IMG/VR virus record: IMGVR_UViG_3300017971_000099 | Coordinates: 1 to 45,075 of that record | Strand: one strand, 5' to 3' | Length of the DNA: 45,075 bases | Source of the DNA: a virus | In this document: piece by piece, positions 1,883 to 44,275 of the stretch | How the letters are laid out: the number at the start of each line of letters is the position of its first letter | Numbering within the stretch: position 1 is the stretch's first letter | Translations under genes and position numbers: made by a program | The notes under the pieces: model-generated | What the model was told of the DNA's origin: nothing | Databases searched by the model: none | The model's input: the letters and a program-made list of their open reading frames with translations, nothing else

Positions 1883-1917
1883 GTCTGTATCACTCCCTTC
1901 TGTGCCTGGGTGGCTCG

Positions 1918-1985
1918 GTGCTCCTTGTCTCAATGGCCGTCGTGGTGACGGTCACTCAGGCAGGGAGCACGGGCTCGCCTGCCTG
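1918..1985 (-). promoter_or_regulatory. Intercistronic RNA element with two competing folds
   Basis: The 106-nt gap between the stop at 1989 and the ATG at 1882 can fold in two exclusive ways. Fold A pairs GTGCTCC (1918-1924) with GGAGCAC (1964-1970) around an 8-bp hairpin TGGCCGTC/GACGGTCA (1934-1941/1947-1954, one G-U pair). Fold B pairs CAGGCAGG-GAGC (1957-1968) with GCTC-G-CCTGCCTG (1973-1985), a 12-bp hairpin with one bulge and an ACGG loop. Both use 1964-1968. This is attenuator- or switch-like geometry, but there is no U-run, so it is not a simple terminator. It may tune expression of the VWA gene relative to the upstream genes. Confidence 0.4.
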
Positions 1986-1988
1986 CTG

Positions 1989-2891: not shown

Positions 2892-2914
2892 TGGCTCTGC
2901 CTTCCTTCCTGTTC

Positions 2915-5361: not shown

Positions 5362-7291
5362 CTTGTGGAAAACTCAATGGGGGTTCGAGCCTGACCCTAA
5401 AGAAATCGAAGCCCCGATACTCGAGCCCGAAGAGCCAGAGGAAGAGCCGCCTCAAACGATCGTTCAGGATGAAGACGACGAAGAGGTACAGCTGTGCCCG
5501 TTGTGTATCCAGGCGAAGAAGAAGAATCCGCAAAAGGTGTTCTGCGCGGGCCTGTGCCAGTCGCATTACAAGCATCTACGCGAACGCGAGAAGCAGAATT
5601 GGGACGGTGAGCGGATACCGCGGGCGCGGGATTTTCATGTGTGGCCGATCAAGAAGATCGGATACGGGCATCAGTTTGAATGGCTCGATATCATGCAGGA
5701 TCAGCCATGGTGCCTGATGATGGCGCCATGCGACCACGGCAAGACGGATACGGTGGCGATATCGTATGCACTATTCCGGGTCGCAGAGAACCCGGACATT
5801 CGCATCGCGATTATCGGCGCGACGGCTCCCCTGGCGAAGATCACGCTGAACGCGATTAAGACGCATCTGGAGTTCAACTATGACTACATTCGGTACTTCG
5901 AGAAGCTGCACGGGTTCAAGCCGAAACCTGATCGGCCGCGCATGTGGACGAAAGAGGCGGCATGTATCAACCGGCACTCGGAAGACAGCGCGATAAAAGA
6001 TCCGACGCTTATAGCGGTAGGTAAGGGTTGCGAGATTGAGAATCGGCGGATCGATCTCATAATTGGCGACGACATGATAACGAAGAACGCCGCGGCCAGC
6101 GATGTGCAGCGAGAGACAGACAAGCAATGGTTCCTCGATGTGGTCATGACGCGCGGTGAGGAAGACTGTGAGGTCAAGCTGATCGGGACTCCGGAGCATC
6201 CGGATGATCTGTATGAATGGATTGCTACCGGCGAGACGGAGACGGGCGAGAAGGTGAATGAGTTCTTCTACGTTGTGAGAGTTCGGGCCGTGGCGCCAAA
6301 AGGTGAGAGCCACTACTACACGGATACCGAGAATATTGTTACGGAGACCGAGCATAAGGACGAAGAGCTTCATGCGCTGTGCCCGGAGATGATGTCGTTG
6401 CCGGGGTTGCTGAAACGCAGCAAGCTGTCATTCAGCACGTTCATGCGTAAATACCAATGCAGGCACTCGGCGGAGACAGAGAGAATGTTTCCACCTGGAA
6501 AGGTGAACGCATGCAAGGATATCGACGTGATCGTGCCGGCCTCGTATGATCGGTATGATCGCGACTTTCGCATGACCGTGATGGGAATCGATATCGCGAC
6601 GGGCCACGGGATCAGCTTTTTCGCGATGGCGCTGCTCGGCATAGATATGGACTTCCGGCACGTGCTGTTGAACGTGTTCCGGGCGCGGCTCAGGTTCGCG
6701 AAGCAGCTTGAACAGATCATGAAATGGTATCGCGCCTATGTGCCGTCATATGTCGGAGTCGAATCGAATGGGCAGCAGAACGCTATCATCGATGCGTATA
6801 AGAACGTGCGTGTCGTTGAGGGAGTCGATGTGACCGGAATCGAGCGGGTGCCGTTCGAGGCGGTCTTCACAAGTAAGGACTTGATCCTCGGGACGACCAC
6901 GGGCCTGAGCGCGATGGTGGACAATGGGAATCTGATTATACCGGATGGCAATATCGAAAGCACAAACACGTTTTTGGCACTCGTGCAGGAAATGAAGGGG
7001 TATCCGAGCAAGCAGCTGAAGGACTGCCTGATGGCGTTACTGATCGCTGAAGGCTTGTATGTGCGGAAATGTACCGTGGGCGATAACGTGGGCTCAGTGC
7101 CCAACGTGCCGATCGTGCGCGGCGCGTTTCGCCGGCGTGTGAAAGGGGCGCGTGCCACGAGGTTTCGAAAGGCCTACCATGCGCCTGAAGGCCCGAAGCG
7201 AGACGAATTCGGGTTACCGAAAGGTGGCGGCGTGAAGGTATCGTTGCTGGATGAGATTCGGAAGCGCTCGTTTAATGGCCGGATGAACTGA
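5354..7291 (+). CDS. terL: Terminase large subunit with N-terminal zinc finger
   Basis: The protein (645 aa) packages DNA into the prohead. The ATPase has a variant Walker A, APCDHGKT (about 123-131), Walker B IDLIIGDD (about 234-241) and a coupling motif with LIGTP (about 277). The RNase H-like nuclease shows GIDIATG (about 411), GVESNG (about 468) and KDCLMAL (about 556), supplying the acidic triad. The first 90 residues are an acidic tail followed by CPLC...CAGLCQSH, a zinc finger not usual in terminases. The GTG at 5354 is the only early start and overlaps a DnaA box. No small subunit gene was recognised; the N-terminal finger might supply part of its DNA-recognition role. Confidence 0.92.
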   Translation: MDNLWKTQWGFEPDPKEIEAPILEPEEPEEEPPQTIVQDEDDEEVQLCPLCIQAKKKNPQKVFCAGLCQSHYKHLREREKQNWDGERIPRARDFHVWPIKKIGYGHQFEWLDIMQDQPWCLMMAPCDHGKTDTVAISYALFRVAENPDIRIAIIGATAPLAKITLNAIKTHLEFNYDYIRYFEKLHGFKPKPDRPRMWTKEAACINRHSEDSAIKDPTLIAVGKGCEIENRRIDLIIGDDMITKNAAASDVQRETDKQWFLDVVMTRGEEDCEVKLIGTPEHPDDLYEWIATGETETGEKVNEFFYVVRVRAVAPKGESHYYTDTENIVTETEHKDEELHALCPEMMSLPGLLKRSKLSFSTFMRKYQCRHSAETERMFPPGKVNACKDIDVIVPASYDRYDRDFRMTVMGIDIATGHGISFFAMALLGIDMDFRHVLLNVFRARLRFAKQLEQIMKWYRAYVPSYVGVESNGQQNAIIDAYKNVRVVEGVDVTGIERVPFEAVFTSKDLILGTTTGLSAMVDNGNLIIPDGNIESTNTFLALVQEMKGYPSKQLKDCLMALLIAEGLYVRKCTVGDNVGSVPNVPIVRGAFRRRVKGARATRFRKAYHAPEGPKRDEFGLPKGGGVKVSLLDEIRKRSFNGRMN

Positions 7292-7301
7292 ACGACTGGT
7301 A

Positions 7302-7317
7302 CGTTCCACGTGGAACA
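7302..7317. promoter_or_regulatory. parS: parS-like centromere palindrome
   Basis: GTTCCACGTGGAAC (7303-7316) is a perfect 14-bp palindrome. The 16-mer at 7302-7317 differs at the first base from TGTTCCACGTGGAACA. This matches the chromosomal parS family (consensus TGTTnCACGTGnAACA) bound by ParB/Spo0J. I saw no ParB gene in the phage and no second copy of the site, so host ParB would be the reader. It lies 11 nt after the terminase stop and 35 nt before the structural promoter. Confidence 0.65.
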
Positions 7318-7351
7318 AGTGTAGTAGAATGAGCATGTTAGAGTGTGCATA

Positions 7352-7380
7352 TTGACACAGTGTGAGACATATGCTACAAT
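7352..7380 (+). promoter_or_regulatory. Promoter of the structural operon
   Basis: TTGACA (7352-7357) and TACAAT (7375-7380) are exactly 17 nt apart, giving a near-consensus host-type promoter. It fires about 50 nt before the portal start at 7440. Its position suggests that the virion genes can be transcribed separately from the terminase gene. The parS-like site immediately upstream could affect it. Confidence 0.85.
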
Positions 7381-7439
7381 TCTAGTGACAGACGCAATAA
7401 AAAGACTGCACCCGCTATCTTGTGTAAAGGAGATCGTAT

Positions 7440-9386
7440 GTGACGACCATCACACAAGACCCGCCGATTGAGCAAACCAAGTACATGACTCAGGCGTCGT
7501 CTCCGAAGAACGCGCGCGAGAAGCCCTCGGTTGACGTGCTGCTGCGTCGTCTCTTCGTGCTGAAGCGAAAGCACGAGCGGCGAAACAGCATGATCCTGCA
7601 TCTCCATCGGCTGTATGAAAGTGATCCAGTGGCTCATGGCATGAGCCCCGGCGCAGATCAGATGGAGATAGTGGTCAACCGATTCTTCGACACGGTGAAC
7701 ACGTTCGTCGATTTCAAGGGTATCCCGCCGAATATTCATTTCTTCCCGCCCGACATGACAGCGGAAGGCCGCAAGTACGCGGACGACATGGAGAAGTATC
7801 TGTACGCGCTCTATGACTACAATGCGTTCGATATGCTCTGGCCTCGCGTGGCGTTCGATATGTCTCTGCTCGGGACGGGCTACATGGGCCTGATGCCGAC
7901 CACGAGCCTCGACGGATTCATCAAGTATCGCCGGTTTACGCCGGTCAATTTCTACCCTCACTGTTACGCCGGAACCAATGACGTGAAGTATTACTTCTAC
8001 GAATCCAGGTACTCGCGTGAGCAGGTTGTGGAGCAATGGGGAAAAGACGTCCTTGAGGGTTCGGGCCAGTCGGAAGCCTGGCGCATGGCGTATCCAGAGC
8101 ATGACGTGGACTCGGACGAAATCATCGTGCTCGAATACTGCGACGAAGACGTTCTCTGTTTCTTGGTGCTCGATAAACTCGTGCAGCTGATCCCGCATGG
8201 CTTCGGCTTCTGTCCTGGCGAGGTCTTCGCGAACATCGTCAAGCCTGACATCGTTGGCGGCGTGTCGGACGTGTCGACGTATGAGTGCATTCAGAAGTAT
8301 GAGAGCGAGCTTTACAGCATGATCGCAGACATCATCTCGTATTGGGCCGATCCGATGTTGCTGCTGAAAAGCGATAAGCTCAGTGCGGGGGAAGTTAACC
8401 TCGGCGGGATCACGATAGTCGAGATGGGAGGAGACGGAAAGTTCTTGGAGCCGAACGTCAAACTTGAGGCGCTTCAGGACCAAATGAAGAAGACGGCTCA
8501 AATATTCCATGACGGCACTATTCCTGAGACGCTGTACGGCAGAGTCGAGACAAAGGGAGCGTTGGGCTCGGCGCCTGTGCTTACCGGGTTGCAGACGAAG
8601 TTCATGGTGCGCTTGAACAGCCTGTACCGGCGCACTGGCCGGAGCTTGGTCGATCTAAACACGATGGCGCTCAAGATGGCGAAGCAGCTGTACTCGAAGA
8701 AGCGCATTCAGACAATCGGCTGGCGTAAGAACAGATACTTCGAGTTGGATATGTACGGCAGCCGAATTGGTGAGCACTTGAGACACCGCGTGTTTTGGGA
8801 TATGTCGGTGACTGACCCGGATCGTCATCTTGTGATGGAACTACAGAAGAACGGAAACAAGCTGCAATCGAAATATCGCACGATCGAGAACCTCGGCATG
8901 TGCGCGGGCGACGAATTGGAGTTGATCCGACAGGAAGACATCTACGAGATCCGCAAGAAAGCGGCTGAAGCGTTTGAGACGCAGCGGTTGCAGCAAGAAT
9001 TCATGCCGCAAGGCATCGAGGGAGTCAACCGCAACGTGGTTTCGCAGATGAAAGGGCGTGTCGGGCCGGCTGAGCGGCCTGGGCCGGGCAGACCTCGCGG
9101 CGTTTTACCCTCCGCGCCACGCGGTGAGGGGCGGGCTCCGGCTGCTCGCGGCTTTGATCCCAAGCGCGTAATCGCTGATCTGCAGGCCGTGAAGAAACTG
9201 AAAGGGGCTGTGTTCTTGGTCGCCGTGGACGATACCGTGGACGTGGCTGTCACGAAGAAGAGCGATAAGGGAATCATAATCAACGCTCCGACGATGCAGG
9301 CGTACCGCGGAAAGATAGTCTTTATCTCGATCCAGCCGGGTGAGGAACAAGAAGGCTGGTATCCGATCAAAGGTGGGGGTGGCTGA
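7440..9386 (+). CDS. Portal protein
   Basis: The 648-residue product follows the terminase gene and has the length and character of a portal protein of a podovirus-like phage. It has an N-terminal helical part, an alpha/beta central part with many aromatic residues, a long helical stem region (about 290-500), and a Gly/Pro-rich linker before a small C-terminal beta domain (about 580-648). It would form the dodecameric ring at the capsid vertex. The start is the GTG at 7440, seven nt after AGGAG; the ATG at 7438 is followed at once by a stop codon. Its stop overlaps the next start as TGATG. Confidence 0.8.
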   Translation: MTTITQDPPIEQTKYMTQASSPKNAREKPSVDVLLRRLFVLKRKHERRNSMILHLHRLYESDPVAHGMSPGADQMEIVVNRFFDTVNTFVDFKGIPPNIHFFPPDMTAEGRKYADDMEKYLYALYDYNAFDMLWPRVAFDMSLLGTGYMGLMPTTSLDGFIKYRRFTPVNFYPHCYAGTNDVKYYFYESRYSREQVVEQWGKDVLEGSGQSEAWRMAYPEHDVDSDEIIVLEYCDEDVLCFLVLDKLVQLIPHGFGFCPGEVFANIVKPDIVGGVSDVSTYECIQKYESELYSMIADIISYWADPMLLLKSDKLSAGEVNLGGITIVEMGGDGKFLEPNVKLEALQDQMKKTAQIFHDGTIPETLYGRVETKGALGSAPVLTGLQTKFMVRLNSLYRRTGRSLVDLNTMALKMAKQLYSKKRIQTIGWRKNRYFELDMYGSRIGEHLRHRVFWDMSVTDPDRHLVMELQKNGNKLQSKYRTIENLGMCAGDELELIRQEDIYEIRKKAAEAFETQRLQQEFMPQGIEGVNRNVVSQMKGRVGPAERPGPGRPRGVLPSAPRGEGRAPAARGFDPKRVIADLQAVKKLKGAVFLVAVDDTVDVAVTKKSDKGIIINAPTMQAYRGKIVFISIQPGEEQEGWYPIKGGGG

Positions 9387-28455: not shown

Positions 28456-29020
28456 GAGAAAGAAAGTGGGGATCGAAAAGCAGACGCTCGTAACCGGCAC
28501 TGTTCAGATGTGCGCCATCAGAACGATTCGACTGGTCGGCAAGGAGTACGAGCATATGCGCCGGATCGTAGGCAAGGATCGTCTTTGGGTTGCACCACTC
28601 GCGTACAAATATTGCAAAGCCACGGACTTCCTCTCGCGTCTCCGCGACGGTTGCATGTGTCTTTTGCATGTGGGCTATGCCAACCATGATTAGAGCGATG
28701 TCATATTGTTTCTGTGGCTTTGGCCGGGCAAGAATGGCGTCTTTGATCTTTGGGATGGGCTTACCTGGAAATGCCAACGTGTCGGCGCAAAGGGGGCATC
28801 TATCAGCCCACGAATCTCCGATTAGGAGTATCGTTGTTCCATCCTCGCGGAGTAAGCGCCGTGCAAGCGCCTGCTGTTCAGCGCCAAACGGAATGCGCGG
28901 CTGCCTGGCTGGATACATTTCGGCAATCTCCGCGGCGAGGTCCGGGCCTGGGTCTGTTCGAATGGAGAACGATATTGCAAAAAAAAGCAATGAAGCTGTA
29001 ATCAACAATATTTTCCTCAT
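28442..29020 (-). CDS. SGNH/GDSL hydrolase, reversed moron gene
   Basis: The 192-residue product has an N-terminal hydrophobic segment (MRKILLITASLLFFAISFSI), so it is probably exported or membrane-anchored. It has the SGNH signature: LIGDSWAD with nucleophile Ser70, Gly114 in VGIAH, and DGAH at 168-171 for the catalytic Asp/His pair. Such enzymes remove acyl groups from sugars, lipids or peptidoglycan. It is the only leftward gene inside the rightward virion block and overlaps the stop of the previous gene. A promoter at 29027-29055 places the transcript start at its ATG, and it has no ribosome binding site, so it is probably leaderless. It may alter the lysogen's surface. Confidence 0.8.
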   Translation of the reverse strand: MRKILLITASLLFFAISFSIRTDPGPDLAAEIAEMYPARQPRIPFGAEQQALARRLLREDGTTILLIGDSWADRCPLCADTLAFPGKPIPKIKDAILARPKPQKQYDIALIMVGIAHMQKTHATVAETREEVRGFAIFVREWCNPKTILAYDPAHMLVLLADQSNRSDGAHLNSAGYERLLFDPHFLSLTLQ

Positions 29021-29026
29021 AAGGAA

Positions 29027-29055
29027 AGTGTACCACAGAAACGGAGACCTGACAA
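29027..29055 (-). promoter_or_regulatory. Promoter of the SGNH hydrolase gene (leaderless mRNA)
   Basis: On the minus strand TTGTCA (29050-29055) and TACACT (29027-29032) are 17 nt apart. The expected start is 6 to 7 nt downstream, at the A of the ATG at 29018-29020. No Shine-Dalgarno sequence precedes that ATG. The promoter overlaps the ribosome-binding region of the holin gene on the other strand. Confidence 0.55.
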
Positions 29056-29289
29056 GTGGCTGAGCATCCATGCAAGCAGGAAGGTACTATTGCTCAAATC
29101 ACGCTAAGACTCAATGAGGGCCATGAGAACTTCAGGGAGCTGCGTCAAGATGTAAAAAACATCTCCGACGAGATAGGGGAAATTAAGCACAAGCTTGGTT
29201 TTATCAATGGCCGCGTTACAGCCTGGGGAGGCATTGCGGGAGCGATTGCCGGGCTGATCGGCAGCGTCCTCATTACCCTGCTGACGTGA
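29056..29289 (+). CDS. Holin-like membrane protein (77 aa)
   Basis: The protein has an N-terminal helical, charged coiled coil (residues 12-50) and one C-terminal hydrophobic helix (TAWGGIAGAIAGLIGSVLITLLT). This is the arrangement of XhlA-type holins or holin accessories. It would make lesions in the inner membrane at the end of infection. The start is a GTG, 9 nt after CGGAG. It is directly followed by the endolysin gene with a GTGA overlap. Confidence 0.7.
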   Translation: MAEHPCKQEGTIAQITLRLNEGHENFRELRQDVKNISDEIGEIKHKLGFINGRVTAWGGIAGAIAGLIGSVLITLLT

Positions 29290-29735
29290 ATGTGGGAGAG
29301 CACAAAGCAATGAGAATAATTATAGGCACACCATCGCTCGCATTCAAAAACGAGCGTATCCGTGACGAATGGTTCTCGGGCAGGCTGGATCCCCGGCTCA
29401 AAGCTGTGATACTCGCCCAGGCCGCGCATGTGAATCACAGTTGGGGATACGTGCTCGAGATTACAGAGATCCACAGGCTGCGAGAAGAGCAACGGCTGAT
29501 TTACCCGAATGACCCTAGAAAGGTGTCCGTACATGAGCTATGGCGCGGCGTGGATGATCTTGTCCGGGAGTTTGACTCGAATCAGCATCACGAGCTTGCG
29601 GCGTGGACGAATAAGTATTTTCCATACGCGAAGCCACAGTACAAGACTTGTAAGCATCACAATGTCGGCTTTGGCTGGCATCTGCATAATCAAGTGGCAG
29701 ACCTCGGCGTGATGAACGCGCTTTATTCGCCATGA
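29286..29735 (+). CDS. M15-type peptidase endolysin
   Basis: The product (149 aa from GTG 29286, or 141 from ATG 29310) has the signatures of M15 (VanY-like) L-alanyl-D-glutamate or D,D-peptidases: ITEIHRLREEQRLIY; SVHELWRGVDD with the His and Asp ligands six residues apart; and GWHLHNQV with the third zinc His. These enzymes cut peptidoglycan stems. There is no wall-binding domain or signal peptide, so it depends on the preceding holin and suits a thin Gram-negative wall. The GTG overlaps the holin stop; the ATG has a more distant purine-rich site. Confidence 0.75.
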   Translation: MNVGEHKAMRIIIGTPSLAFKNERIRDEWFSGRLDPRLKAVILAQAAHVNHSWGYVLEITEIHRLREEQRLIYPNDPRKVSVHELWRGVDDLVREFDSNQHHELAAWTNKYFPYAKPQYKTCKHHNVGFGWHLHNQVADLGVMNALYSP

Positions 29736-29750
29736 TTGGAGGCTGATCGT

Positions 29751-30749
29751 ATGGCCGTAAAGATACAGAACGGCGGAAGTGAGCCGATCTACACGGCGGC
29801 GCTGATGGATGCAAGCCGAACGCTCCTGACCGGCTTGTCGAATGTATACGTGCGTGTGCGCCGTGAGAGCGACGGCTACTATCTCGACTTCGGTGATATG
29901 ACGTTCAAGGCTTCGCCGGGAAGCATCCAGACGGCCATGTCCGAGGTCAGCGCTGCGAACATGCCGGGCGTATACCTCTACGATTTTGACTTGTCGAACG
30001 TCACGAATGAGACGCAGAACGACGTGTACCTGTTCGTCGTCAACTGCGCGTCGGCCATCAACGCACCACAGCAGGGTGAGCTAATCACTGATGATCTGGA
30101 AGCGCGCTCCGGGTGGGGCACGTACACATTCACAGCGACCGTGCAGGACTCCGCCGACTCTTCCCCGATACCGGCCGCGACGGTGCAGATTCGCAACGCT
30201 GCCGGCACGATCGTTGTAGGCCAGAATACCACGAACGTCAACGGCCAATGCACGTTCCTGCTCGATACCGGCACGTACTCGGTCTATGTGTATGCGACGG
30301 GCTACACGTTTTCGAATCCGTATGTGCTCGGGATCTCGGGCAACGGATCGGCCACGTATCAGGGTACGGCGTTCAGCGTCGGGGCCCCAGGCTCGGCTGA
30401 TGTGTGTCGCGTCTATGGGTTTGTCAAAGATATAGAGGGCGCCGCGATTCAGGGGGTGCGGGTGAGAGCCGAACTCAACTCGCGCTCGGCGTACATCACT
30501 GCTGCAAGCTCGGGAACCTTAATAACGAACACGACCGCGCATGCCGTGACGAACGCGGACGGCTACTGGTATATCGACTTGATCCCGAATGCAGACTTGG
30601 AAGTTGAGCCGACTGGTACGATAGGCCAGCCTTCAGGCAGCACAGACACGAGCTATACGTTCCATTTCGACGGAGCCAACTACAAGCGGAAATACTCGCC
30701 GGTGATCGTGCCGGACGAAACGACGGCGGACTTTAAGACGTTGGTTTAA
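29751..30749 (+). CDS. Virion-associated protein with two carboxypeptidase-regulatory-like domains
   Basis: The start is the ATG after GGAGG at 7 nt. The first 115 residues (AVKIQNGGSEPIYTAALMDASR) resemble a phage baseplate or fibre attachment domain. Two Ig-like carboxypeptidase-regulatory-like beta-sandwiches follow: TFTATVQDSADSSPIPAATV...TGTYSVYVYATGYTF (about 120-210) and YGFVKDIEGAAIQGVRVRA...ADGYWYIDLIPN (about 225-320). Such domains bind polysaccharides on virion surfaces. It is the last rightward gene and its stop overlaps that of the convergent Tnp20-like gene, with no terminator between them. Confidence 0.65.
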   Translation: MAVKIQNGGSEPIYTAALMDASRTLLTGLSNVYVRVRRESDGYYLDFGDMTFKASPGSIQTAMSEVSAANMPGVYLYDFDLSNVTNETQNDVYLFVVNCASAINAPQQGELITDDLEARSGWGTYTFTATVQDSADSSPIPAATVQIRNAAGTIVVGQNTTNVNGQCTFLLDTGTYSVYVYATGYTFSNPYVLGISGNGSATYQGTAFSVGAPGSADVCRVYGFVKDIEGAAIQGVRVRAELNSRSAYITAASSGTLITNTTAHAVTNADGYWYIDLIPNADLEVEPTGTIGQPSGSTDTSYTFHFDGANYKRKYSPVIVPDETTADFKTLV

Positions 30750-31594
30750 ACCGTAACCGGCTCTTTTTCGTGGCCGAGGTATTCTTGCTGATATGAGGGT
30801 CTGACCGGCAAGTTCTCACGCACTCTCCATTCCAGGTAGAGGTCTTTCAAGAACATCTTTATCATGTATCGCTTCGCTGCCATGTCTCTATGACCCTTCG
30901 ATACATCCTTCCACGCCTTGCCGTCGCCTTTGACTGCATTCCGTTCGTGCTCAAGGCGTTCCTTGTAAGGATAATAGAAGTTGAGCGCATATGGCGACTG
31001 CGCCTTCAGGAAGCCGCTGGCCAAGACACCGACAAGAGCGGTTCGCAGGCGCTTGTTGTAGGGAAGCACGAATTCTGGCGTGGCCTTGTCTGCGCGTACC
31101 ATGTCGTCTGTCTGCACGATATACGCTTCCGGCTGATCTTCCTTATTCATAAGCGTCCTGACTATCTGCCCCATGTCTTTCGTATAGTCCTCGATTTTGA
31201 CCCGCTTCTTACCGCGCACTTCGCCTGGATTGAGTCCGGCGTATTGCCACATCTTAGATACAGTTACGGCCTTCTTGATGTCGAACTCGGCCAACAGCCA
31301 GCCGGCAGCTATCGGGCCGACGCCCTTGACCGTTGAGAGCCACTCATTGTAAACCGGGAAACGCTTCAGGACACTTGCAAGCTTGCCCGCAATTATGGCC
31401 TCCATCTGGCGCGCCTCATCGGAGATGGAGGCAAGAATGAGAACGTCGTCGACGCGCAGAAAACGGCGGCGCACGTCTTGTGCAGAGCCATCGGCCTTCC
31501 GTCCAAGTCGGTTGTCGATAGCCTTACGCAACGCCTGAAAATCTTCCCTCACTCGTGTGAGAAACTTCAGCATTTCCTGATCTTGTGATTTCAT
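30746..31594 (-). CDS. IS110 C-terminal-domain (Transposase_20) protein without the DEDD domain
   Basis: The 282-residue protein starts 8 nt after AAAGGAG, which directly follows the repeat array. Residues 1-85 are helical and coiled-coil-like. Residues about 88-145 match the Transposase_20 domain of IS110/IS116/IS902 transposases, with helix-hairpin-helix KGVGPIAAGWLLAEFD and SKMWQYAGLNPG. The later YNKRLRTALVGVLASGF and MAAKRYMIKMFLKDLY helices also follow the family. The N-terminal RuvC-like DEDD nuclease domain is missing. Where active members have the catalytic Ser-Gly after the GLxP motif, I read Arg-Gly (EVRGKK), so the recombinase serine is probably absent. A nearby gene supplies a separate RuvC-like nuclease. 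It is the last gene of the leftward early operon. Confidence 0.75.
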   Translation of the reverse strand: MKSQDQEMLKFLTRVREDFQALRKAIDNRLGRKADGSAQDVRRRFLRVDDVLILASISDEARQMEAIIAGKLASVLKRFPVYNEWLSTVKGVGPIAAGWLLAEFDIKKAVTVSKMWQYAGLNPGEVRGKKRVKIEDYTKDMGQIVRTLMNKEDQPEAYIVQTDDMVRADKATPEFVLPYNKRLRTALVGVLASGFLKAQSPYALNFYYPYKERLEHERNAVKGDGKAWKDVSKGHRDMAAKRYMIKMFLKDLYLEWRVRENLPVRPSYQQEYLGHEKEPVTV

Positions 31595-31613
31595 AGTAAA
31601 CGCTCCTTTAGGA

Positions 31614-31929
31614 TGGTTGACTTAACTACCCTGGCACGCTCCTTTTTTATGGTTGACTTAACCAGCATGGCACGCTTGTCTTTTTTGGGTTTCTTACAAA
31701 GCTTGGCGCGCTTTAACCTTGTGGGTTTCTTTAGCTTCTTGGCTCGCTTTCACCCCCTGGGTTCCTTCTTGATGGTGGCTCGCTTCTATACTGTGGGTTT
31801 CTTGAACACGATGGCGCGCTTACCTTATTTGGTTTGCTTGAGACCGATGGCTCGCTTCAGCTTGTTGGTTTTCTTCAATACTGTGGCTCGCTTGCTCAAG
31901 AAGGGTTTCTTTTTTACCATGGCTATTTC
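31614..31929 (-). repeat. 18-nt-period array: alternating 10-nt blocks with 8-nt variable spacers
   Basis: Eighteen units start at 31614, 31632 and every 18 nt to 31920, without a single insertion or deletion. On the minus strand two block types alternate strictly: A, AAGCGnGCCA, and B, AAGAAACCCA (B varies slightly, for example AAGTCAACCA at 31614 and 31650). Each is followed by 8 unrelated bases, such as TCTTGAGC, ACAAGCTG, TCGTGTTC, AGCTTTGT or TGCTGGTT. Two spacers are near-identical (CAGTATTG, CAGTATAG). A degraded A block at 31596-31605 reaches the ribosome binding site of the Tnp20-like gene; the other end meets the stop of the HExxH gene. The minus frame giving KRAxxxKKPxxx is broken by TAA, TAG and TGA. 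The plus strand is open but has no ribosome binding site. Confidence 0.9.
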
Positions 31930-32309
31930 TTCAAAATCCTTTCCATCAGGAATTCTATCAGGTAGGCATACGTTTCAGATGATTCGAGAGTCAGAGGCAC
32001 CTTGTTTTCGAGTGCGAAATGGACAGCATGAAAGCATTCGTGTGCAAGCCAGTACACCTTACGTCGTTTGGTCCATATCCAAATAACCTCGCTCCCGTTC
32101 TCGCTTTCAAAGTGCTTACAGGTTCCGCCGATACGTTCATTCGGTGGCAATTTATAACCGAGAGTGCGTTGCACAGCCTCGCGCCAGCGGGAATAGGAGA
32201 TCCCGTAGCTCACCCAATAGTTTGTTCCGAAGATCTCATCATAGATGTGCTGCGGAACGTGCTTTTTGGGTTTCTTGGCTTTAGGCTTCGACTTCTTGGT
32301 CTTTTTCAT
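31923..32309 (-). CDS. HExxH metallopeptidase-like protein (128 aa)
   Basis: The N terminus is Lys/Pro-rich (MKKTKKSKPKAKKPKKHV), a probable DNA- or RNA-binding tail. Residues about 88-97 carry AHECFHAVHF, an HExxH zinc site, followed about 18 residues later by ESSETYAYLIEF, which can supply the third ligand as in gluzincin- or IrrE-like peptidases. The gene overlaps the RuvC-like gene upstream by ATGA, and its stop codon lies at the edge of the array. The codons for KAKKPKK contain AAGAAACCCA, the exact B block of the array, so the array may have grown from such a tail-coding sequence. Its substrate is unknown. Confidence 0.65.
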   Translation of the reverse strand: MKKTKKSKPKAKKPKKHVPQHIYDEIFGTNYWVSYGISYSRWREAVQRTLGYKLPPNERIGGTCKHFESENGSEVIWIWTKRRKVYWLAHECFHAVHFALENKVPLTLESSETYAYLIEFLMERILKK

Positions 32310-32941
32310 TTGACACCGACTATCCTTCCCTTGTCGTCATACACGGCCCGATTGGTGCGTATCGCCTCGGCTATCTGCTCGTCGGTCATGTCACGAAGTT
32401 TCGGTTTCCGCTTGGAGGGCTGCGGCTTCTGAAAATCCAACGGCTGCTGCGTCGGCATCGTGGGCCATGCCGCCCGGAACTCGCGCATCGCACAGCAGCA
32501 GGCTGTGGCAATCGCGTCAACGGCATGGAGATCGTGAATCTTGGGCAAATTGAGGAACCGCATCAACGTTTTTCGGACTTGTTGCTTCTTCGCGGTGCCG
32601 CCACAGATTGCACCACGTACACTGGAAGCGGTGTAGCTGTCGACGTAAATGCCCAATTCTTCACCTATAAGCTCGATGATTCCCTGCACCTGAACCGTGA
32701 TTATCTTTTCCTTTGGTGTTGCCTGATACTTCGAGAAGACATACATCTCGTAGCACATCACATCAATCAGATGCTTTTTGCAATAGACCGTGATCCATTC
32801 GTAGGTGTCTTGAAAATGATGGCCGATAACAGGGATCGTGCCGTAGTTGGCTACTGTGATTTCGCGGGTGTCATGCGACACTTTGATCTCGGCGAAGCCG
32901 GTACTCACGGCGCCGGGATCGAACCCGAGGATGGTGGTCAT
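32306..32941 (-). CDS. RuvC-like Holliday junction nuclease
   Basis: The 211-residue protein shows the RuvC order: GFDPGAVSTGFA with Asp8, MCYEMYVF with Glu65, and DLHAVDAIATA with His139 and Asp142 three residues apart, as in RuvC enzymes that use a His at that site. The Lys-rich stretch KKQQVRKTLMRFL precedes it. After residue 155 comes a basic tail, KPQPSKRKPKLRD. Phage RuvC-like enzymes resolve branched DNA before packaging. I chose ATG 32941 (AGGA 6 nt upstream); a GTG at 32977 would add 12 residues. It is separated from the Tnp20-like gene only by the HExxH gene and the array. Confidence 0.85.
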   Translation of the reverse strand: MTTILGFDPGAVSTGFAEIKVSHDTREITVANYGTIPVIGHHFQDTYEWITVYCKKHLIDVMCYEMYVFSKYQATPKEKIITVQVQGIIELIGEELGIYVDSYTASSVRGAICGGTAKKQQVRKTLMRFLNLPKIHDLHAVDAIATACCCAMREFRAAWPTMPTQQPLDFQKPQPSKRKPKLRDMTDEQIAEAIRTNRAVYDDKGRIVGVK

Positions 32942-32973
32942 GGGGCTTCCTAATGCAACTTCTTCCTTTGATA

Positions 32974-33264
32974 TCACTCACTCACCCTCACTTCCTCGCA
33001 CTCCGCGAGTCCGCCGATGGTGACGGTCACAGGGCCGTCCTGTGTCACTGTATAGACCGAGTACGCCCCGCCGTCGTTCATAGGGATTAGGGTCAGGGGC
33101 TCTCCATTTGCGGAGTACGACAGCGAGGCGTCAAGGTCTAAGATGTGCACGACCTCACCGACTGGCCGTTGGAAGGTGAAAGGCCAATCAGTGTGAGCAA
33201 GCAGTCTTGACATGATTACGGTGATGCCAAGAGCGATGATGGTACTATTCTTCCAGTGATTCAC
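32974..33264 (-). CDS. Membrane-anchored or exported small protein (96 aa)
   Basis: The likely start is the GTG at 33264, which overlaps the end of the upstream small gene. Residues 7-22 are hydrophobic (STIIALGITVIMSRLL), a signal anchor or uncleaved signal. The remaining 70 residues are beta-rich (VVHILDLDASLSYSANG, GPVTVTIGGLAECEEVRVSE), suggesting a small periplasmic beta domain. The stop overlaps the longer possible start of the RuvC-like gene. Function unknown; a role in superinfection exclusion is a guess. Confidence 0.55.
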   Translation of the reverse strand: MNHWKNSTIIALGITVIMSRLLAHTDWPFTFQRPVGEVVHILDLDASLSYSANGEPLTLIPMNDGGAYSVYTVTQDGPVTVTIGGLAECEEVRVSE

Positions 33265-33385
33265 GTCGAATCCGTTCTAAGAGCCTGTGACGACCCCCAT
33301 TAGCTATAAATTCCATCTCTTTATACCAAGCATCTATCTCGGCCCGTGCTTTATTCCGTATGCGGTTGTACTCTTCCCGAGTCAT
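33245..33385 (-). CDS. Small charged helical protein (46 aa)
   Basis: The frame from the ATG at 33385 reads MTREEYNRIRNKARAEID and ends RRESLEE. It is a strongly charged helix with no hydrophobic part. It fills the space between the Cys-rich gene (stop 33404) and the anchored protein gene, overlapping the latter by 20 nt, which supports that it is translated. The ribosome binding site is weak. Function unknown. Confidence 0.5.
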   Translation of the reverse strand: MTREEYNRIRNKARAEIDAWYKEMEFIANGGRHRLLERIRRESLEE

Positions 33386-33403
33386 GCCTAACGCAAGCGC
33401 ACA

Positions 33404-33661
33404 CTACACGTCTACTCCCCTCTTGCGCAGTTCGGACTTGACCTTGCGCGTGATTTGGGCGTTGGTGTATGTTGGATAGTCACAATCATTCGGGCAGTTG
33501 TACCCTCTCTTCGGGAACCAATCACGACAGCGCTCAGTACAGTGTCGGTAATAATCTGCGCCTAGCCCACGATCAAATGGGCACTGTAACCATCGCTGCT
33601 TTGCGGGCAGTGCCAGCGCCAACTGTAAGCACAGGATTTCCCATTTTTCGAGCTTGCGCAT
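33404..33661 (-). CDS. Cysteine-rich protein (85 aa)
   Basis: AAGGAGG lies just before the ATG at 33661. The sequence has an N-terminal amphipathic helix (MRKLEKWEILCLQLALALP) and a middle with QCPFDRGLGADYYRHCTERCRDWFPKRGYNCPNDC. Its Cys residues could bind zinc, or form disulfides if the protein is exported. It follows the structured gap at 33675-33745. No family was recognised. Confidence 0.6.
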   Translation of the reverse strand: MRKLEKWEILCLQLALALPAKQRWLQCPFDRGLGADYYRHCTERCRDWFPKRGYNCPNDCDYPTYTNAQITRKVKSELRKRGVDV

Positions 33662-33674
33662 TTTCCCTCCTTTC

Positions 33675-33745
33675 TCCCACAAGGGGGCAGGGTGTGCGTT
33701 TCACCGTTAGGTGCCGCCCATCGGACCCCTACCCCGCGTGTGGGA
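33675..33745 (-). promoter_or_regulatory. Intercistronic folded RNA element (71 nt)
   Basis: TCCCACA (33675-33681) pairs with TGTGGGA (33739-33745), and the adjoining G-rich and C-rich runs can extend the stem with mismatches. A CACC-gtta-GGTG hairpin lies inside. The element starts 6 nt after the stop of the preceding gene on the minus strand and ends at the ribosome binding site of the Cys-rich gene. It resembles the larger elements at 40295-40391 and 41377-41474 in placement, with weaker pairing. Confidence 0.35.
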
Positions 33746-33751
33746 AGGCTG

Positions 33752-34090
33752 TTAATCCACCACTACAACTGCTTCACACGGCTGAGGCGGTGTACTGTGA
33801 GGCCCGCTGTAACACCACTTGGTCGTCCCGTCCATCTGGACACGAACCCACAGGTCGGCGATGTCCCACGGAAGCAAGACACGTACTTCTGCTTGACCTG
33901 CAGGCATGACTACCAGGGGTACATATGGGCCAGTTTCGCCATCACACGAAAGCTCAACTGTGTACCCCCGTTCTGCTGATATCGGCGACGGCTGAATACC
34001 AACTTCGTTGTCTTCGAAGTCAGTGCCGAACGCCATAGCCGGTGCGACCAACAGGGCCGCGAGTGCGAGTGCTACAACTATTCCCTTCAT
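33752..34090 (-). CDS. Exported protein with signal peptide (112 aa)
   Basis: AAGGAG precedes the ATG at 34090 by 9 nt. Residues 1-20 are a clear Sec signal peptide (MKGIVVALALAALLVAPAMA). The mature part has two likely disulfide-forming Cys pairs (LSCDGE and WCYSG...QPCEAV) and is beta-rich. It would be secreted to the periplasm during early infection or lysogeny. Function unknown; it belongs to a run of three small exported or anchored proteins. Confidence 0.65.
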   Translation of the reverse strand: MKGIVVALALAALLVAPAMAFGTDFEDNEVGIQPSPISAERGYTVELSCDGETGPYVPLVVMPAGQAEVRVLLPWDIADLWVRVQMDGTTKWCYSGPHSTPPQPCEAVVVVD

Positions 34091-34103
34091 TGATCTATTC
34101 TCC

Positions 34104-34310
34104 TTATGTAGCAACAAACTCACCTGTCTTTAGATCGCACCCGTAATAACCCTCAATCTCCGGCAATCCATGATTAAGGGCTATACGGTGTGCATCCTGT
34201 TGGGGATTACTCATGGGCTTACCACCAGACAAACACATGCCGCTGGTTTGCAATGACGTTTTGAGTCTTTCGATTTCCTCTTTTGTCGCGAACACGCCCG
34301 TTCTTTTCAT
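34104..34310 (-). CDS. Small protein of unknown function (68 aa)
   Basis: The start codon overlaps the previous stop as ATGA, and the preceding coding sequence provides AAAGGAG. The product has a helical N terminus (TKEEIERLKTSLQTS) and a C terminus ending HGLPEIEGYYGCDLKTGEF. No domain was recognised. Translational coupling supports that it is real. Confidence 0.55.
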   Translation of the reverse strand: MKRTGVFATKEEIERLKTSLQTSGMCLSGGKPMSNPQQDAHRIALNHGLPEIEGYYGCDLKTGEFVAT

Positions 34311-34645
34311 TCTGCCGCTCCTTTCTGTGCGTCTACCCTTTCTATCGTTACCACAATATACTCTGGCATTTCCATTTTGGTCGGATACATAAATATCCAG
34401 CGCGGTAGAAATAGTAAGTCGTTATCTACCATAGATGGTTCCCCTGGCACGGGTCTGTAAATGTAATCATTGACTACGTGCTGCTTGTCGTTTGCACGAA
34501 AGAGAAAGCGGTGAATCTCGGTGGATGAAAGGTTATCATTGAGTCCTGTGACAGATGTTGTGCGGCTATTTGGTACAAACAGCAACCATGCTACAAAGGC
34601 CGCTATCAACACGCCGATTATTTGATTTACTATCGTTTCTCTCAT
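34307..34645 (-). CDS. Small membrane protein (112 aa)
   Basis: AAGGAG lies before the ATG at 34645. Residues 6-25 form one transmembrane helix (VNQIIGVLIAAFVAWLLFVP), followed by about 85 polar residues with a Pro/Tyr-rich middle (YIYRPVPGEPSMVDND) and a C-terminal strand (EYIVVTIERVDAQ). The topology, with few positive charges before the helix, is unclear. It could block superinfecting phage at the membrane. It is preceded by a short gap containing a 6-bp stem at 34674-34718. Confidence 0.55.
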   Translation of the reverse strand: MRETIVNQIIGVLIAAFVAWLLFVPNSRTTSVTGLNDNLSSTEIHRFLFRANDKQHVVNDYIYRPVPGEPSMVDNDLLFLPRWIFMYPTKMEMPEYIVVTIERVDAQKGAAE

Positions 34646-34673
34646 TCTGCCGCTCCTTCCTGGTCTTCGCTGT

Positions 34674-34718
34674 CGTGAATCGAGTGATCAAAACGGCGCA
34701 TCCTGATGGGCTTTCACG
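34674..34718 (-). promoter_or_regulatory. Possible intercistronic stem (45 nt)
   Basis: CGTGAA (34674-34679) pairs with TTCACG (34713-34718), enclosing a CATC-ct-GATG palindrome. The stem includes the stop codon of the PolX-like gene and ends just before the ribosome binding site of the small membrane protein gene. A 6-bp stem in a gap of this size can occur by chance, so the evidence is weak and rests on its similarity in placement to the larger elements. Confidence 0.2.
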
Positions 34719-35229
34719 CTTCTCGCTCCCACGGCTCCTTATACGGCATTTTGAGCGCGTCGAAGATGTCAGCCTCAGTCATAACCTTGACCCGCCGCAC
34801 ATCGTGGCAGTCGGCGGGCTCTTCGAGGCCGTCTCCGTTGGCCTTCAGGCACAGATTCATTTCTCTGGCCCGTTTGCAGAGTATGATATTGTGCTCTTTT
34901 GAGCCGGTGCGGATCAACAGCAGCGTGGCCCACGTCTCAGCGGTAGCGACGTACAGATCGACCGGGATGCCTTCCCACCTGAACCGGATTATCTTGTCTC
35001 CGCCCTTTGGCGTAATCCGATGTTCTTGGAAAAAGAGTTGAAAGCCGGGGCCGGGTATCACTACGAGATCAATGTCATGCACGTAAGGCTTGTGCCGGCG
35101 AAGGCTGCCGGCAATCTCGATGCGCTCACAGTGGCGGCTCAGCGCTCGATAGAGGTCTAAGGCGGTAGCGCTGGCTTCCGCAGCCGGATACCGCTTAGGT
35201 TCGTCTTTTGGGAATAGGTCTTCTGTCAT
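34714..35229 (-). CDS. Family X polymerase-like nucleotidyltransferase
   Basis: The 171-residue protein contains the palm of the DNA polymerase beta superfamily: IAGSLRRHKPYVHDIDLVVIP, with the GS motif at 41-42 and Asp52 and Asp54, then the third Asp in VDLYVA (91). RTGSKEHNIILCKRARE and TEADIFDALKMPYKEPWERE match the C-terminal thumb of PolX. The N-terminal 8-kDa and helix-hairpin-helix domains are missing. It may fill gaps, add nucleotides at ends, or modify tRNA or other acceptors. It overlaps the ASCH gene by 4 nt. Confidence 0.8.
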   Translation of the reverse strand: MTEDLFPKDEPKRYPAAEASATALDLYRALSRHCERIEIAGSLRRHKPYVHDIDLVVIPGPGFQLFFQEHRITPKGGDKIIRFRWEGIPVDLYVATAETWATLLLIRTGSKEHNIILCKRAREMNLCLKANGDGLEEPADCHDVRRVKVMTEADIFDALKMPYKEPWEREA

Positions 35230-37539: not shown

Positions 37540-39114
37540 TTAGAACATTTCGCGTTGTGTTGCCTGCGCTGCCAGCTTGTCGAGCACCTGGGCCTGCAGC
37601 ACTGAATCACTGAGTTGTTTCCACGTTTTGTTCTTCTCCCAATCATCTTTGGACAGGCCAAATTTGGGGAGCAGGCCGGTGATGAAAAAGTACACCTTGT
37701 TGCGCGTGGCCTTATCGTTCAAGAGCCGTTCGATTTCGGCGTGGATCCGCTGCGTCTCAGATTCCGAATCAGGCGACGGGGGCACAGGATTTCCGGAGTT
37801 GCTGTTGTCCTGCCAATCGGCCCCGTCACCTTCACCCGCCGCCTGTTCGGTAGGCGCGGGGGCAGAGCCGGTGTCACCCGCGCCTGACTGTTTGTGTTCC
37901 TCTTCCTGTAATCGGTCCCACAGCTTACGCGCCTTTGGCATCGTTAAGAGGTTCGGATCATTTTTGCCGAATCCGATATTTTTGAACTCATCTCCGAGGT
38001 GCAGGGCAAATATCCGGATGAACTTCTTCAGTGCATCGTCGGTTGTGATGTTGGGCCGGAGTCGTCGGGCTGTGGCGAATATGCCGTTCCGCTGCTCGTT
38101 GCTCATGGGTTTTGTCTCGGGCGGCTTGTACGGGCCGGGCTCACCGTTGGCAAACGGGCACTCATCGCCAATGTCGGGCGGTTCCTCGGGTGGCGGCGGC
38201 TCTTCCGGCTCGGACTTCGGGAAATCGACGGACGGCGTGGCTGCCTCGGCGTCGGTGACTACCTCGCCGTCAATGATGTCTCCATTGCCTTCAGGATAGA
38301 ATTCTTCCTGTATGTCGGCCTCGGTTTCGGCCTCGGGGTCAGCCTCAAGCAGCTTGTCAATCTGGCCCCGGAGCGCGAGTGTTTCCCTGTAGCCGACTGC
38401 TCTGCGTTGGCCGATCTCTTTTGCGCGTTCGAGCAAGGAGAATACATCGCCGGGGTAGCCCAACGATACGATATAGATAGTGGTAACGGTATCCGCGACG
38501 GCGATGGTCTTGCCCTGCACCTTGAGCTTGAGCGGGATGCCGGCCAGGATGCCGTTGGTGATCGCCGTTATCTCTTCCATTGCCGCCAGAATGTTGTTCA
38601 GCGAATTCCATGACGTCGTTCGGAACTTGTATACGCCGCCGACCTGAGCCGATTGCGGAAGCATGACCGACAGGATCGCGTGGGGCTTGCACTGAAATTT
38701 CTTTGTCCCGCCGTTCTCTTTTTCTAGGTACTCGCAGGGGCATGCGCGCTCTTCAAACTTGTCCGTTTCTTTGTTGCGGCGTTGGGCCTGTTCGCCGTCA
38801 CCCTGACACCAGAGCTTGCGGCCAGCATAGAGCCCGTAGAAGTTGGGCATGTTCTTGGCCGGCTCATCGTGCAAGAGGATGATGTCAAGCTCGGTCGGGT
38901 GCTCTCCGTAGTGCTGCATGACAGCCGGATCGGCTTTGAAGTTGCCGGAATCGTCACGTTCGAGCGTGGTCACGGTGAACCATCCATGCTTGACGGGGAG
39001 TTGGTACTCACGCCCGCTGCTCTTTGCGGTGCGCTTCTCGCCTTTGCCGCCGATTTTGATCTTGCCGACTTCGGCAAGCCGAATGTTTAAGTCTTTGATC
39101 CGTGTGAATTGCAT
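37540..39114 (-). CDS. Gp3-like / recombination directionality factor-like protein (524 aa)
   Basis: Residues 1-230 resemble the phiC31 Gp3-like family: [16 protein letters not shown] near the start, then [28 protein letters not shown], a CxxxxxxxxRRNK...CPCEYLE...FQC zinc cluster, [10 protein letters not shown] and [14 protein letters not shown]. Some members steer serine integrases toward excision; others are only annotated as metal-binding. Residues 245-340 are acidic and proline-rich linkers. Residues about 345-405 form a helical part ([20 protein letters not shown]), and the end is another helical domain. This phage has a tyrosine integrase, so direct control of it by this protein is uncertain; a role in recombination or as a DNA-binding early protein is as likely. 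Confidence 0.5.
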
Positions 39115-43264: not shown

Positions 43265-44275
43265 ATGAGCATCTATCTGAGGGGCAATGTGTGGTATTCG
43301 GACATCTATGTTAATGGCCGGCGCGTGAGGCGGCGGCTGTCGGATGATGCGGAAGAGGCACGGGCGATGCTGCGGGAAATGAAGCAGCAACGGGATTGGC
43401 AGCGCTGGCATTTAATCACTCCACAGCTGGCTGTGCGGGAGGTTATACAAGTCTATCTGAGGCGCGCAAAGGCCACGTGTCGAGCGTCAACGCTGAATCG
43501 ATACGAGTACCAACTGAATCACTTCGAAGGATTCTGCAAAGCGGTCGGTGTTACGCACGTCTCGGGGCTCACGCTGCAGCTGGCTGATGATTACGTGCTC
43601 TGGCGCAAGGAGCAAGGCGCTGCCCCGAACACGATCAACCAAGAACTGATTATGGTGCGCGCTGCGCTGGCCTATGCCGTGCGGCTCGGCCGCCTGGAAT
43701 CGAATCCATGGGAGCGGATCGAAAAGCTGAAGGTGTCTGACAAATCGCCACGGGTTTTCACTCGGGAAGAGATACGGGCGATTACTGACACGATGCCAAC
43801 ATGGGCTGCGGACGCGGTGACGTTGCTCACGTATACCGGGATGCGTGTCGGTGAGCTACAGCATTTGACATGGCGTGATGTGGATCTGCAGCGTGAGACG
43901 ATCACGATCACATCTCGGGCGGTACAAACGAAAACAGGCCACAGCTGGCTGGTGCCACTGGCCGGGCCTGCGCTCGAGATTTTGCGGCGGCGGTCGGAGG
44001 CACGGGATCGGCGCGCGTGCATCATCTGGACAGAGCGCGGCCCGTTTCACAGAAACTCGCTGCGCGAAATGTTTCAGCGTCGACTACGGGGGCTCGGGCT
44101 TGAGCATGGCACGATACATGATCTCCGGCACACGTTCGCAAGCTGGATGATCGAGGCGGGTGCGTCACTCGATACGGTACAGGCCATTCTAGGGCATCGG
44201 ACGTACAAGACTACCGAGCGCTATAAACACCTCTCCCCTGGGTTTCTCAAGGGAGAAGTGGACAGACTAACTTAA
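43265..44275 (+). CDS. int: Tyrosine integrase
   Basis: The 336-residue protein has an N-terminal beta-hairpin arm-binding domain (about 1-50), a core-binding helical domain (about 55-150) and a catalytic domain with Arg194 (TGMRVGE), Lys223 (TKTGHSW), His285 and Arg288 (HDLRH), His311 (LGH) and the nucleophile Tyr320 (TERYKHLS). All six residues are present, so it should be active. It inserts the genome into the host chromosome. The last arm-type site ends 3 nt before its ATG, so integrase binding could repress its own gene. The 3' end overlaps a leftward gene by 9 nt. Confidence 0.95.
   Translation: MSIYLRGNVWYSDIYVNGRRVRRRLSDDAEEARAMLREMKQQRDWQRWHLITPQLAVREVIQVYLRRAKATCRASTLNRYEYQLNHFEGFCKAVGVTHVSGLTLQLADDYVLWRKEQGAAPNTINQELIMVRAALAYAVRLGRLESNPWERIEKLKVSDKSPRVFTREEIRAITDTMPTWAADAVTLLTYTGMRVGELQHLTWRDVDLQRETITITSRAVQTKTGHSWLVPLAGPALEILRRRSEARDRRACIIWTERGPFHRNSLREMFQRRLRGLGLEHGTIHDLRHTFASWMIEAGASLDTVQAILGHRTYKTTERYKHLSPGFLKGEVDRLT

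What the first reader, a model, noticed from the sequence alone, without database searches (positions are those of the whole stretch)
30746..32941. Split IS110-like locus: separate RuvC-like nuclease, HExxH protein, array and Transposase_20 protein
IS110 transposases fuse a RuvC-like DEDD nuclease to a Transposase_20 domain and are guided by a bridge RNA from flanking non-coding DNA. Here the two domain types are separate genes on one strand, with a repetitive non-coding array between them, next to the Transposase_20 gene. The Transposase_20 protein seems to lack the catalytic serine (Arg-Gly where Ser-Gly is expected), so it might be an RNA- or DNA-binding partner of the nuclease instead of a transposase. 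No transposon ends were seen.
Basis: partly seen in the sequence, partly recalled or inferred. Interest (0 to 1): 0.75.

Follow-up and report, generated by a model that had tools for sequence, protein, structure and literature searches.

The report
Phage TIGR-TasA guide-RNA locus
This phage carries a small RNA-guided DNA-binding system of a kind first described in 2025 (TIGR-Tas): a protein usually mislabelled as a transposase, next to a repeat array that should be cut into 36-base guide RNAs; it is a new example of that known kind, and the nearby nuclease gene is probably unrelated to it.

Summary
The array and the Transposase_20-like protein are real, but this is not a split IS110. The array (31923-31601, minus strand) has nine exact 36-nt units: edge repeat AGCGAGCCA, 9-nt spacer A, loop repeat AGAAACCCA, 9-nt spacer B, with truncated edges at both ends. 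All three stop codons fall in spacers. This is the published anatomy of a TIGR array. The 282-aa protein matches solved TasH and TasR by sequence and fold (VIA Z 20.9 and 19.1; IS621 15.1; Nop5 8.2) and has no nuclease domain, so it is TasA, the solo Nop-domain Tas protein. A 36-nt array lies beside tasA in 15 of 15 first relatives and in 73 of 81 distinct loci of the wider set. The repeat pairs seen in the published TasR structure covary here. The neighbouring RuvC is an ordinary Holliday-junction RuvC by sequence; Pfam RuvC is over its cut-off in 1 of 61 relatives' virus records. Most likely a TasA dimer loads 36-nt guides and binds, without cutting, DNA matching both spacers on opposite strands. 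I found no target above controls in the phages' own contigs or 1.4 Mb of relatives. New member of a known kind; the novel residue is RuvC acting in trans (about 4%).

The parts
30746..31594 (-). tasA: solo Nop-domain Tas protein, 282 aa (annotated as Transposase_20 / phrog_4285 'transposase')
   Evidence: PDB sequence hits TasH 21kl_A E=5.4e-11 and 9mty_A E=4.9e-9; profile E=4.6e-21 and 6.2e-23; AF2 model pLDDT 89.3; Foldseek and VIA top matches are TasH and TasR
31601..31923 (-). dual-repeat TIGR array, 9 units of 36 nt, read on the minus strand, between the HExxH gene and tasA
   Evidence: chance test
31920..31923 (-). 5'-truncated first edge repeat (GCCA), abutting the TAG stop (31925-31923) of the upstream gene
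   Evidence: sequence
31614..31910 (-). nine loop repeats (consensus AGAAACCCA) at 31910, 31874, 31838, 31802, 31766, 31730, 31694, 31658, 31622 (5' ends), alternating with eight full edge repeats (consensus AGCGAGCCA) at 31892, 31856, 31820, 31784, 31748, 31712, 31676, 31640
31601..31604 (-). 3'-truncated last edge repeat (AGCG); with the end of the last spacer B it forms the likely Shine-Dalgarno (AAGGAG) of tasA
   Evidence: sequence; ribosome-binding role inferred
31923..32309 (-). HExxH protein, 128 aa, function unknown; upstream neighbour, not part of the TIGR module
   Evidence: phrog_1365 E=3.9e-10; family absent from 15 of 15 relatives' records
32306..32941 (-). RuvC-type Holliday-junction resolvase gene; neighbour, probably not part of the TIGR module
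   Evidence: PF02075 E=4.9e-16; PDB hits are RuvC proteins, not TasR; rare in relatives

Best explanation
A TIGR-TasA system of the dual-repeat kind in a tailed phage with an integrase gene. Shown here: tasA encodes a solo Nop-domain protein; the array beside it has edge and loop repeats, two 9-nt spacers per 36-nt unit, and truncated edges at both ends. Inferred from the characterised members: the array is transcribed on the minus strand, perhaps with the genes upstream; with TasA's help a host RNase cuts it in the middle of each edge repeat into 36-nt tigRNAs; a TasA dimer holds one tigRNA through its two box C/box D pairs; and the RNP binds, unwinds and bends double-stranded DNA where spacer A pairs with one strand and spacer B with the adjacent stretch of the other. 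With no nuclease domain, it most likely acts by occupying DNA and so blocks transcription or replication of foreign DNA, for example of rival phages or plasmids. The neighbouring RuvC most likely serves the phage's own DNA metabolism.
For: Array anatomy matches the published description point by point (against PMC12045711). Sequence and fold matches to TasH and TasR. The experimentally studied SpTIGR of Salicola phage CGphi29 has the same edge consensus AGCGAGCCA and a near-identical loop AGACAACCA. tasA and a 36-nt array go together: 15 of 15 loci; 73 of 81 distinct loci over the highest of 40 shuffles each. Covariation in 70 parsed loci: edge positions 2-7 pair in 96.9% of 1179 edges (87.9% expected if independent; G-C, G-U and A-U types), edge 3-6 in 95.4% (88.3%; C-G and U-A), loop 2-7 in 95.1% of 1173 loops (89.3%; G-C and U-A); eight of the other positions tested show no such excess. 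No self-target above control, as expected of guides against foreign DNA.
Against: No expression, processing or DNA binding was tested. No target was found, so the blocking of foreign DNA is unproved; regulation or help to an integrase stay open. Box D reads AG, not the UG of TasR arrays (SpTIGR also has AG). No terminator-like site was found at the end of the array, unlike the typical case. 8 of 81 distinct loci show no array over shuffles; at least four of these have tasA within about 230 nt of a contig end. The counts for covariation take repeats of one array as separate, so they overstate independence.
Confidence: 0.93

Rival explanations
1. Split TasR: TasA is guided by tigRNAs and recruits the separately encoded RuvC next door, so the pair works in trans as an RNA-guided nuclease.
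For: The RuvC gene lies on the same strand about 0.7 kb upstream of tasA, in one possible operon. TasR is a natural fusion of RuvC and Nop domains (PMC12045711). Two relatives have a Pfam RuvC on the same contig as tasA: L066's contig, about 5.3 kb away, and, by matching contig length of 18008 bases, L142's, about 3.4 kb away.
Against: Pfam RuvC in 0 of 15 and over the cut-off in 1 of 46 relatives' virus records; by tblastn the window's RuvC has no match in the relatives searched. Its PDB matches are canonical RuvC proteins and not TasR. RuvC-type resolvases are common phage genes (established knowledge; phrog_159 and phrog_1770). Pfam and tblastn could miss very diverged RuvC-like genes.
Confidence: 0.04
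2. A decayed or split IS110 transposon with its bridge RNA.
For: PF02371 Transposase_20 match just over its cut-off; PHROG label 'transposase'; fold match to IS621 (VIA Z 15.1).
Against: No DEDD domain: the model begins with the coiled coil and the match to IS621 begins at its residue 123. TasH and TasR match better (Z 19-21). The array has the TIGR anatomy and is kept with tasA in dozens of loci; the gene is intact in relatives at 32-58% identity.
Confidence: 0.01
3. The same TIGR-TasA system, but its job is regulation of phage genes or help to DNA integration, not interference with foreign DNA.
For: TasA has no nuclease; the window has a tyrosine-recombinase integrase (43265-44275) and a Gp3-like recombination directionality factor (37540-39114); PMC12045711 raises the integrase idea in its discussion. 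Spacers of array 1 to 9 match nothing that I could identify.
Against: No spacer pair matches the phage's own contig above the mispaired control in 15 arrays tested, so regulation of its own genes by exact pairing is unlikely. Host chromosome not known, so host sites could not be tested.
Confidence: 0.2
4. The array is a decayed repeat region of a lysine-rich protein gene, or a set of iterons.
For: Read in one minus-strand frame the units give K/R-rich 12-aa repeats.
Against: In-frame TAA, TAG and TGA in variable segments only; paired positions covary at RNA level across loci; same array in relatives with unrelated flanks.
Confidence: 0.01

Closest known systems
TIGR-TasA, dual-repeat type (Faure et al. 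2025, PMC12045711; FpTIGR is its characterised example)
   Same: Solo Nop-domain protein; adjacent array of alternating edge and loop repeats with 9-nt spacers and a 36-nt unit; truncated edges at the ends; 9 units, within the usual 5-15
   Different: Box D reads AG; array ends directly in the ribosome-binding site of tasA with no terminator found; upstream RuvC and HExxH genes are not part of the published module
SpTIGR / TasH of Salicola phage CGphi29 (PDB 21kl, 9w04 and others)
   Same: Same edge consensus AGCGAGCCA, loop AGACAACCA against AGAAACCCA; closest solved structure by sequence and fold
   Different: TasH carries an N-terminal HNH nuclease; the window's protein does not
TasR (PDB 9mty)
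   Same: Nop-domain fold (VIA Z 19.1), array logic
   Different: RuvC is fused in TasR; here RuvC is a separate, canonical gene
IS110 family (IS621 recombinase, PDB 8wt6 and 8wt9)
   Same: Related RNA-binding domain fold (VIA Z 15.1)
   Different: No DEDD domain, no single bridge RNA, no transposon
Box C/D snoRNP Nop5
   Same: Distant fold match (1nt2_B, VIA Z 8.2)
   Different: No fibrillarin or L7Ae partner seen; DNA, not RNA, is the expected target

Membership tests
TIGR-Tas (TasA, dual-repeat) | Nop-domain protein of the Tas family | tested here: met
   phmmer and profile hits to TasH and TasR; fold VIA Z 20.9 and 19.1 over 213 and 191 residues
TIGR-Tas (TasA, dual-repeat) | Adjacent array of two alternating 8-12-nt repeats with about 9-nt spacers, 36-nt unit | tested here: met
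   Nine exact 36-nt units
TIGR-Tas (TasA, dual-repeat) | 5'-truncated first edge and 3'-truncated last edge | tested here: met
   GCCA at 31923-31920; AGCG at 31604-31601
TIGR-Tas (TasA, dual-repeat) | Box C (CCA) and box D pair in both repeats, covarying | tested here: met
   CCA ends 8 of 9 loops and 8 of 8 full edges; pairs covary across 70 loci. Box D is AG, not UG; SpTIGR has AG too
TIGR-Tas (TasA, dual-repeat) | No nuclease domain in the Tas protein (TasA) | tested here: met
   Pfam finds Transposase_20 only over cut-off; model covers the Nop part of TasH and TasR only
TIGR-Tas (TasA, dual-repeat) | Array followed by a rho-independent terminator (typical, not defining) | tested here: not met
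   None on the minus strand at the array end; tasA follows at once
TIGR-Tas (TasA, dual-repeat) | Processing into 36-nt tigRNAs; RNA-guided DNA binding | not testable with these tools
   Needs small-RNA sequencing and binding assays
TasR | RuvC fused to the Nop domain | tested here: not met
   Separate genes; no linkage in relatives
IS110 transposon | N-terminal DEDD RuvC-like domain fused to Transposase_20 | tested here: not met
   IS621 match starts at its residue 123; no such domain in Pfam
IS110 transposon | Catalytic serine | tested here: inconclusive
   No conserved Ser before Gly124 in 15 proteins; the IS110 motif is recalled, not aligned

The most novel reading that the evidence does not exclude
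A naturally split RNA-guided nuclease: TasA with its tigRNAs directs the separately encoded phage RuvC to guide-matched DNA, where the two guide-opened strands or the bent DNA offer a substrate like a branched DNA junction.
Probability: 0.04. Interest if true: 0.75.

Novelty: new member of a known kind. Interest (0 to 1): 0.36.

Why it matters
Genes of this kind are annotated as transposases (Pfam Transposase_20, phrog_4285), so TIGR-TasA loci in phages are overlooked. The 70 loci parsed here give 2226 spacers and show the predicted RNA pairs by covariation, which supports the published structure for TasA arrays too. Array content changes faster than tasA, so the guides are under turnover. What TasA arrays aim at remains open; the sets collected here make that testable when host and neighbour genomes are known.

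Tried and rejected
Protein-coding reading of the array: rejected, all three stops in variable segments. Split IS110 and split TasR: see rivals. Self-targeting: units of 15 arrays (237 units parsed, those with both spacers 9 nt long used) against their own contigs, up to 2 mismatches, gaps 0-2: 5 hits in the two opposite-strand geometries and 6 in the same-strand controls; mispaired control about 3.3 and 5.0; nothing above chance. Targets among relatives: 1053 units against 1.40 Mb with arrays masked, up to 1 mismatch: 0 exact hits; 22 and 17 one-mismatch hits in the two geometries against 7-10 and 8-12 in mispaired sets and 14 and 6 in wrong-phase sets; the excess comes mostly from A/T-rich spacers hitting the near-duplicate contigs G009 and G012, so I do not claim it. 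One IMG/VR scan with unit 5 of the window (8+8 bases, gap 0-4): 67 stretches; 33 with gap 1 and 15 with gap 4, which share a codon phase; no common gene family beyond small groups of near-identical or related contigs; read as chance.

Idea that guides are stored as synonymous variants of coding targets: suggested by array L121 (TTTCTACAA/TGTGATTAG, TTCCTACAA/TGTGATTAG, TTCCTGCAA/TGTGATTAA), but by eye the other related guide pairs do not keep a three-base spacing more than about one in three, and the scrambled control gave 34 pairs against 52 at the same loose cut; not supported in general.

A tally of 0 shared spacers for L104 with L103 and L106 is a phase artefact of my parser: one search shows shared units shifted by one base.

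Rfam: no match in 29000-35000. No tRNA in the window. Two parsed loci (L075, L137) were dropped before the counts as false or badly phased arrays; L075 is one of the 73 and 72 counted, although its true array is the short one found as L009.
Full report
What is there. On the minus strand of the window lie, in order, a RuvC-type gene (32306-32941, or 32977 with a GTG start), a 128-aa HExxH protein (31923-32309, overlapping the RuvC gene by four bases), a repeat array (31923-31601) and a 282-aa protein (30746-31594). The window is a 45,075-base virus record with terminase large subunit, portal or adaptor, major head protein, PD-(D/E)XK exonuclease, Gp3-like recombination directionality factor and a tyrosine integrase: a tailed phage.

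The array. Read on the minus strand it is nine units of exactly 36 nt: 9-nt spacer A, loop repeat (consensus AGAAACCCA), 9-nt spacer B, edge repeat (consensus AGCGAGCCA). It starts with a truncated edge GCCA that touches the stop codon of the HExxH gene and ends with a truncated edge AGCG, seven bases before the ATG of tasA; the last unit also supplies a likely ribosome-binding site. In-frame TAA, TAG and TGA all lie in the variable segments, so it is not a protein repeat. In this locus 16 of 18 spacers end in A, so the effective spacer may be 8 nt, as published for SpTIGR. The 36-nt periodicity (0.689 identity) exceeds every one of 500 Markov simulations (maximum 0.422). There is no second array in the window by the same motif search (longest other chain 3 elements).

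The protein. Pfam gives Transposase_20 just over its cut-off and PHROGs gives phrog_4285 'transposase', E=2.3e-35. Against solved structures the only two sequence hits are TasH of the SpTIGR system (E=5.4e-11) and 9mty_A, the TasR structure (E=4.9e-9); a profile of 15 relatives gives 4.6e-21 and 6.2e-23. The AlphaFold2 model (mean pLDDT 89.3, pTM 0.83) matches TasH best (Foldseek E=3e-11; VIA Z 20.9 over 213 residues), then TasR (Z 19.1), then IS110-type recombinases ISCro4 and IS621 (Z 15.1), then archaeal Nop5 (Z 8.2). It begins at the coiled coil, without a nuclease domain. It is therefore TasA in the sense of PMC12045711 (read).

Relatives. A search of IMG/VR gave 15 loci (14 distinct tasA) at 32-58% identity; all 15 have dual-repeat arrays beside tasA with the same kind of repeats. 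A profile search gave 80 viral loci and 7 loci in bacterial assemblies, among them Spirochaetaceae and Dehalococcoidia MAGs. Of 81 distinct loci, 73 have a 35-37-nt periodic array within 3 kb of tasA above the highest of 40 shuffles each, 72 with z over 5. Parsed arrays from 70 loci hold 2226 spacers, 2095 of them 9 nt. The Salicola phage CGphi29 locus, whose TasH was studied in PMC12045711, has the same edge AGCGAGCCA.

RNA-level evidence. PMC12045711 reports a box C/box D pair in both repeats and a second pair in the edge. In my set these are positions 2-7 and 3-6 of the 9-nt repeats. They pair in 96.9% and 95.4% of 1179 edges (87.9% and 88.3% expected if independent) and 2-7 in 95.1% of 1173 loops (89.3%), with changes between G-C, A-U, G-U and U-A types between loci (edges AGCGAGCCA, AACGAGTCA, AATGTATCA, AGTGAACCA; loops AGAAACCCA and ATAAACACA), while loop 3-6 and the other register controls show no excess. 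Repeats of one array are not independent, so this is a description and not a probability.

The RuvC gene. It is a RuvC family member (PF02075 E=4.9e-16) and its solved relatives are canonical RuvC proteins, not TasR. Pfam RuvC is found in 0 of 15 and over the cut-off in 1 of 46 of the relatives' virus records; in one MAG it lies on a contig whose length equals that of the tasA contig. The HExxH family phrog_1365 is in 0 of 15. So what is conserved is tasA plus array, and the two upstream genes are local neighbours.

Function. By analogy with characterised TIGR systems, TasA should bind 36-nt tigRNAs and use the two spacers to bind opposite strands of a DNA site. I looked for sites: none above control in own contigs, none exact in 1.40 Mb of relatives, and no coherent target in one IMG/VR scan. 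This argues against regulation of the phage's own genes by exact pairing and leaves foreign or host DNA as the likely target. Blocking of foreign DNA is my best guess for the role (about 0.6 given the identity), with regulation or help to integration as the main other role (about 0.2).

Turnover. Loci with close tasA genes can have different arrays: L078/L079 (94.8% tasA DNA identity) share 0 of 23 and 13 spacers; L088/L096 (94.7%) share 0 of 46 and 18; L090/L091 (95.5%) share 9 of 43 and 17; L097/L098 (97.5%) share 7 of 24 and 40; others with 99.6-100% identity share all or nearly all. Arrays thus change faster than the effector, although no adaptation gene is known.

Verdict. A clear, intact TIGR-TasA locus: a new member of a known kind.

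Noticed in passing
L013 4683-4817 (same as L102 5683-5817): Eight TIGR repeat elements lie in frame inside the tasA reading frame, as a roughly 45-aa insertion that the other 14 aligned proteins lack: an array that is also coding sequence.
   Followed up: partly
L121 array, 6771-8507: One array holds several near-copies of the same guide pair that differ at a few positions, as if one target site were stored in variants. Cause not known.
   Followed up: partly
L067 and L074 arrays (L003, L008): Loop repeats with box D AT and box C ACA beside normal edges: a G-C to U-A swap of the box pair in one repeat only.
   Followed up: yes
L130 3194-8520: Very long TIGR content: 218 parsed repeat elements around one tasA, with repeats ending in CCG instead of CCA.
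   Followed up: no
L078/L079, L088/L096, L090/L091, L097/L098: Arrays of loci with 94.7-97.5% identical tasA share few or no spacers: fast array turnover without known adaptation genes.
   Followed up: partly
window 590-3925: Gene pair DUF2201 metallopeptidase/VWA-like protein and MoxR-like AAA ATPase (phrog_1297) at the left end of the window.
   Followed up: no
window 31923-32309: HExxH protein of phrog_1365, function unknown, at the 5' end of the array.
   Followed up: partly
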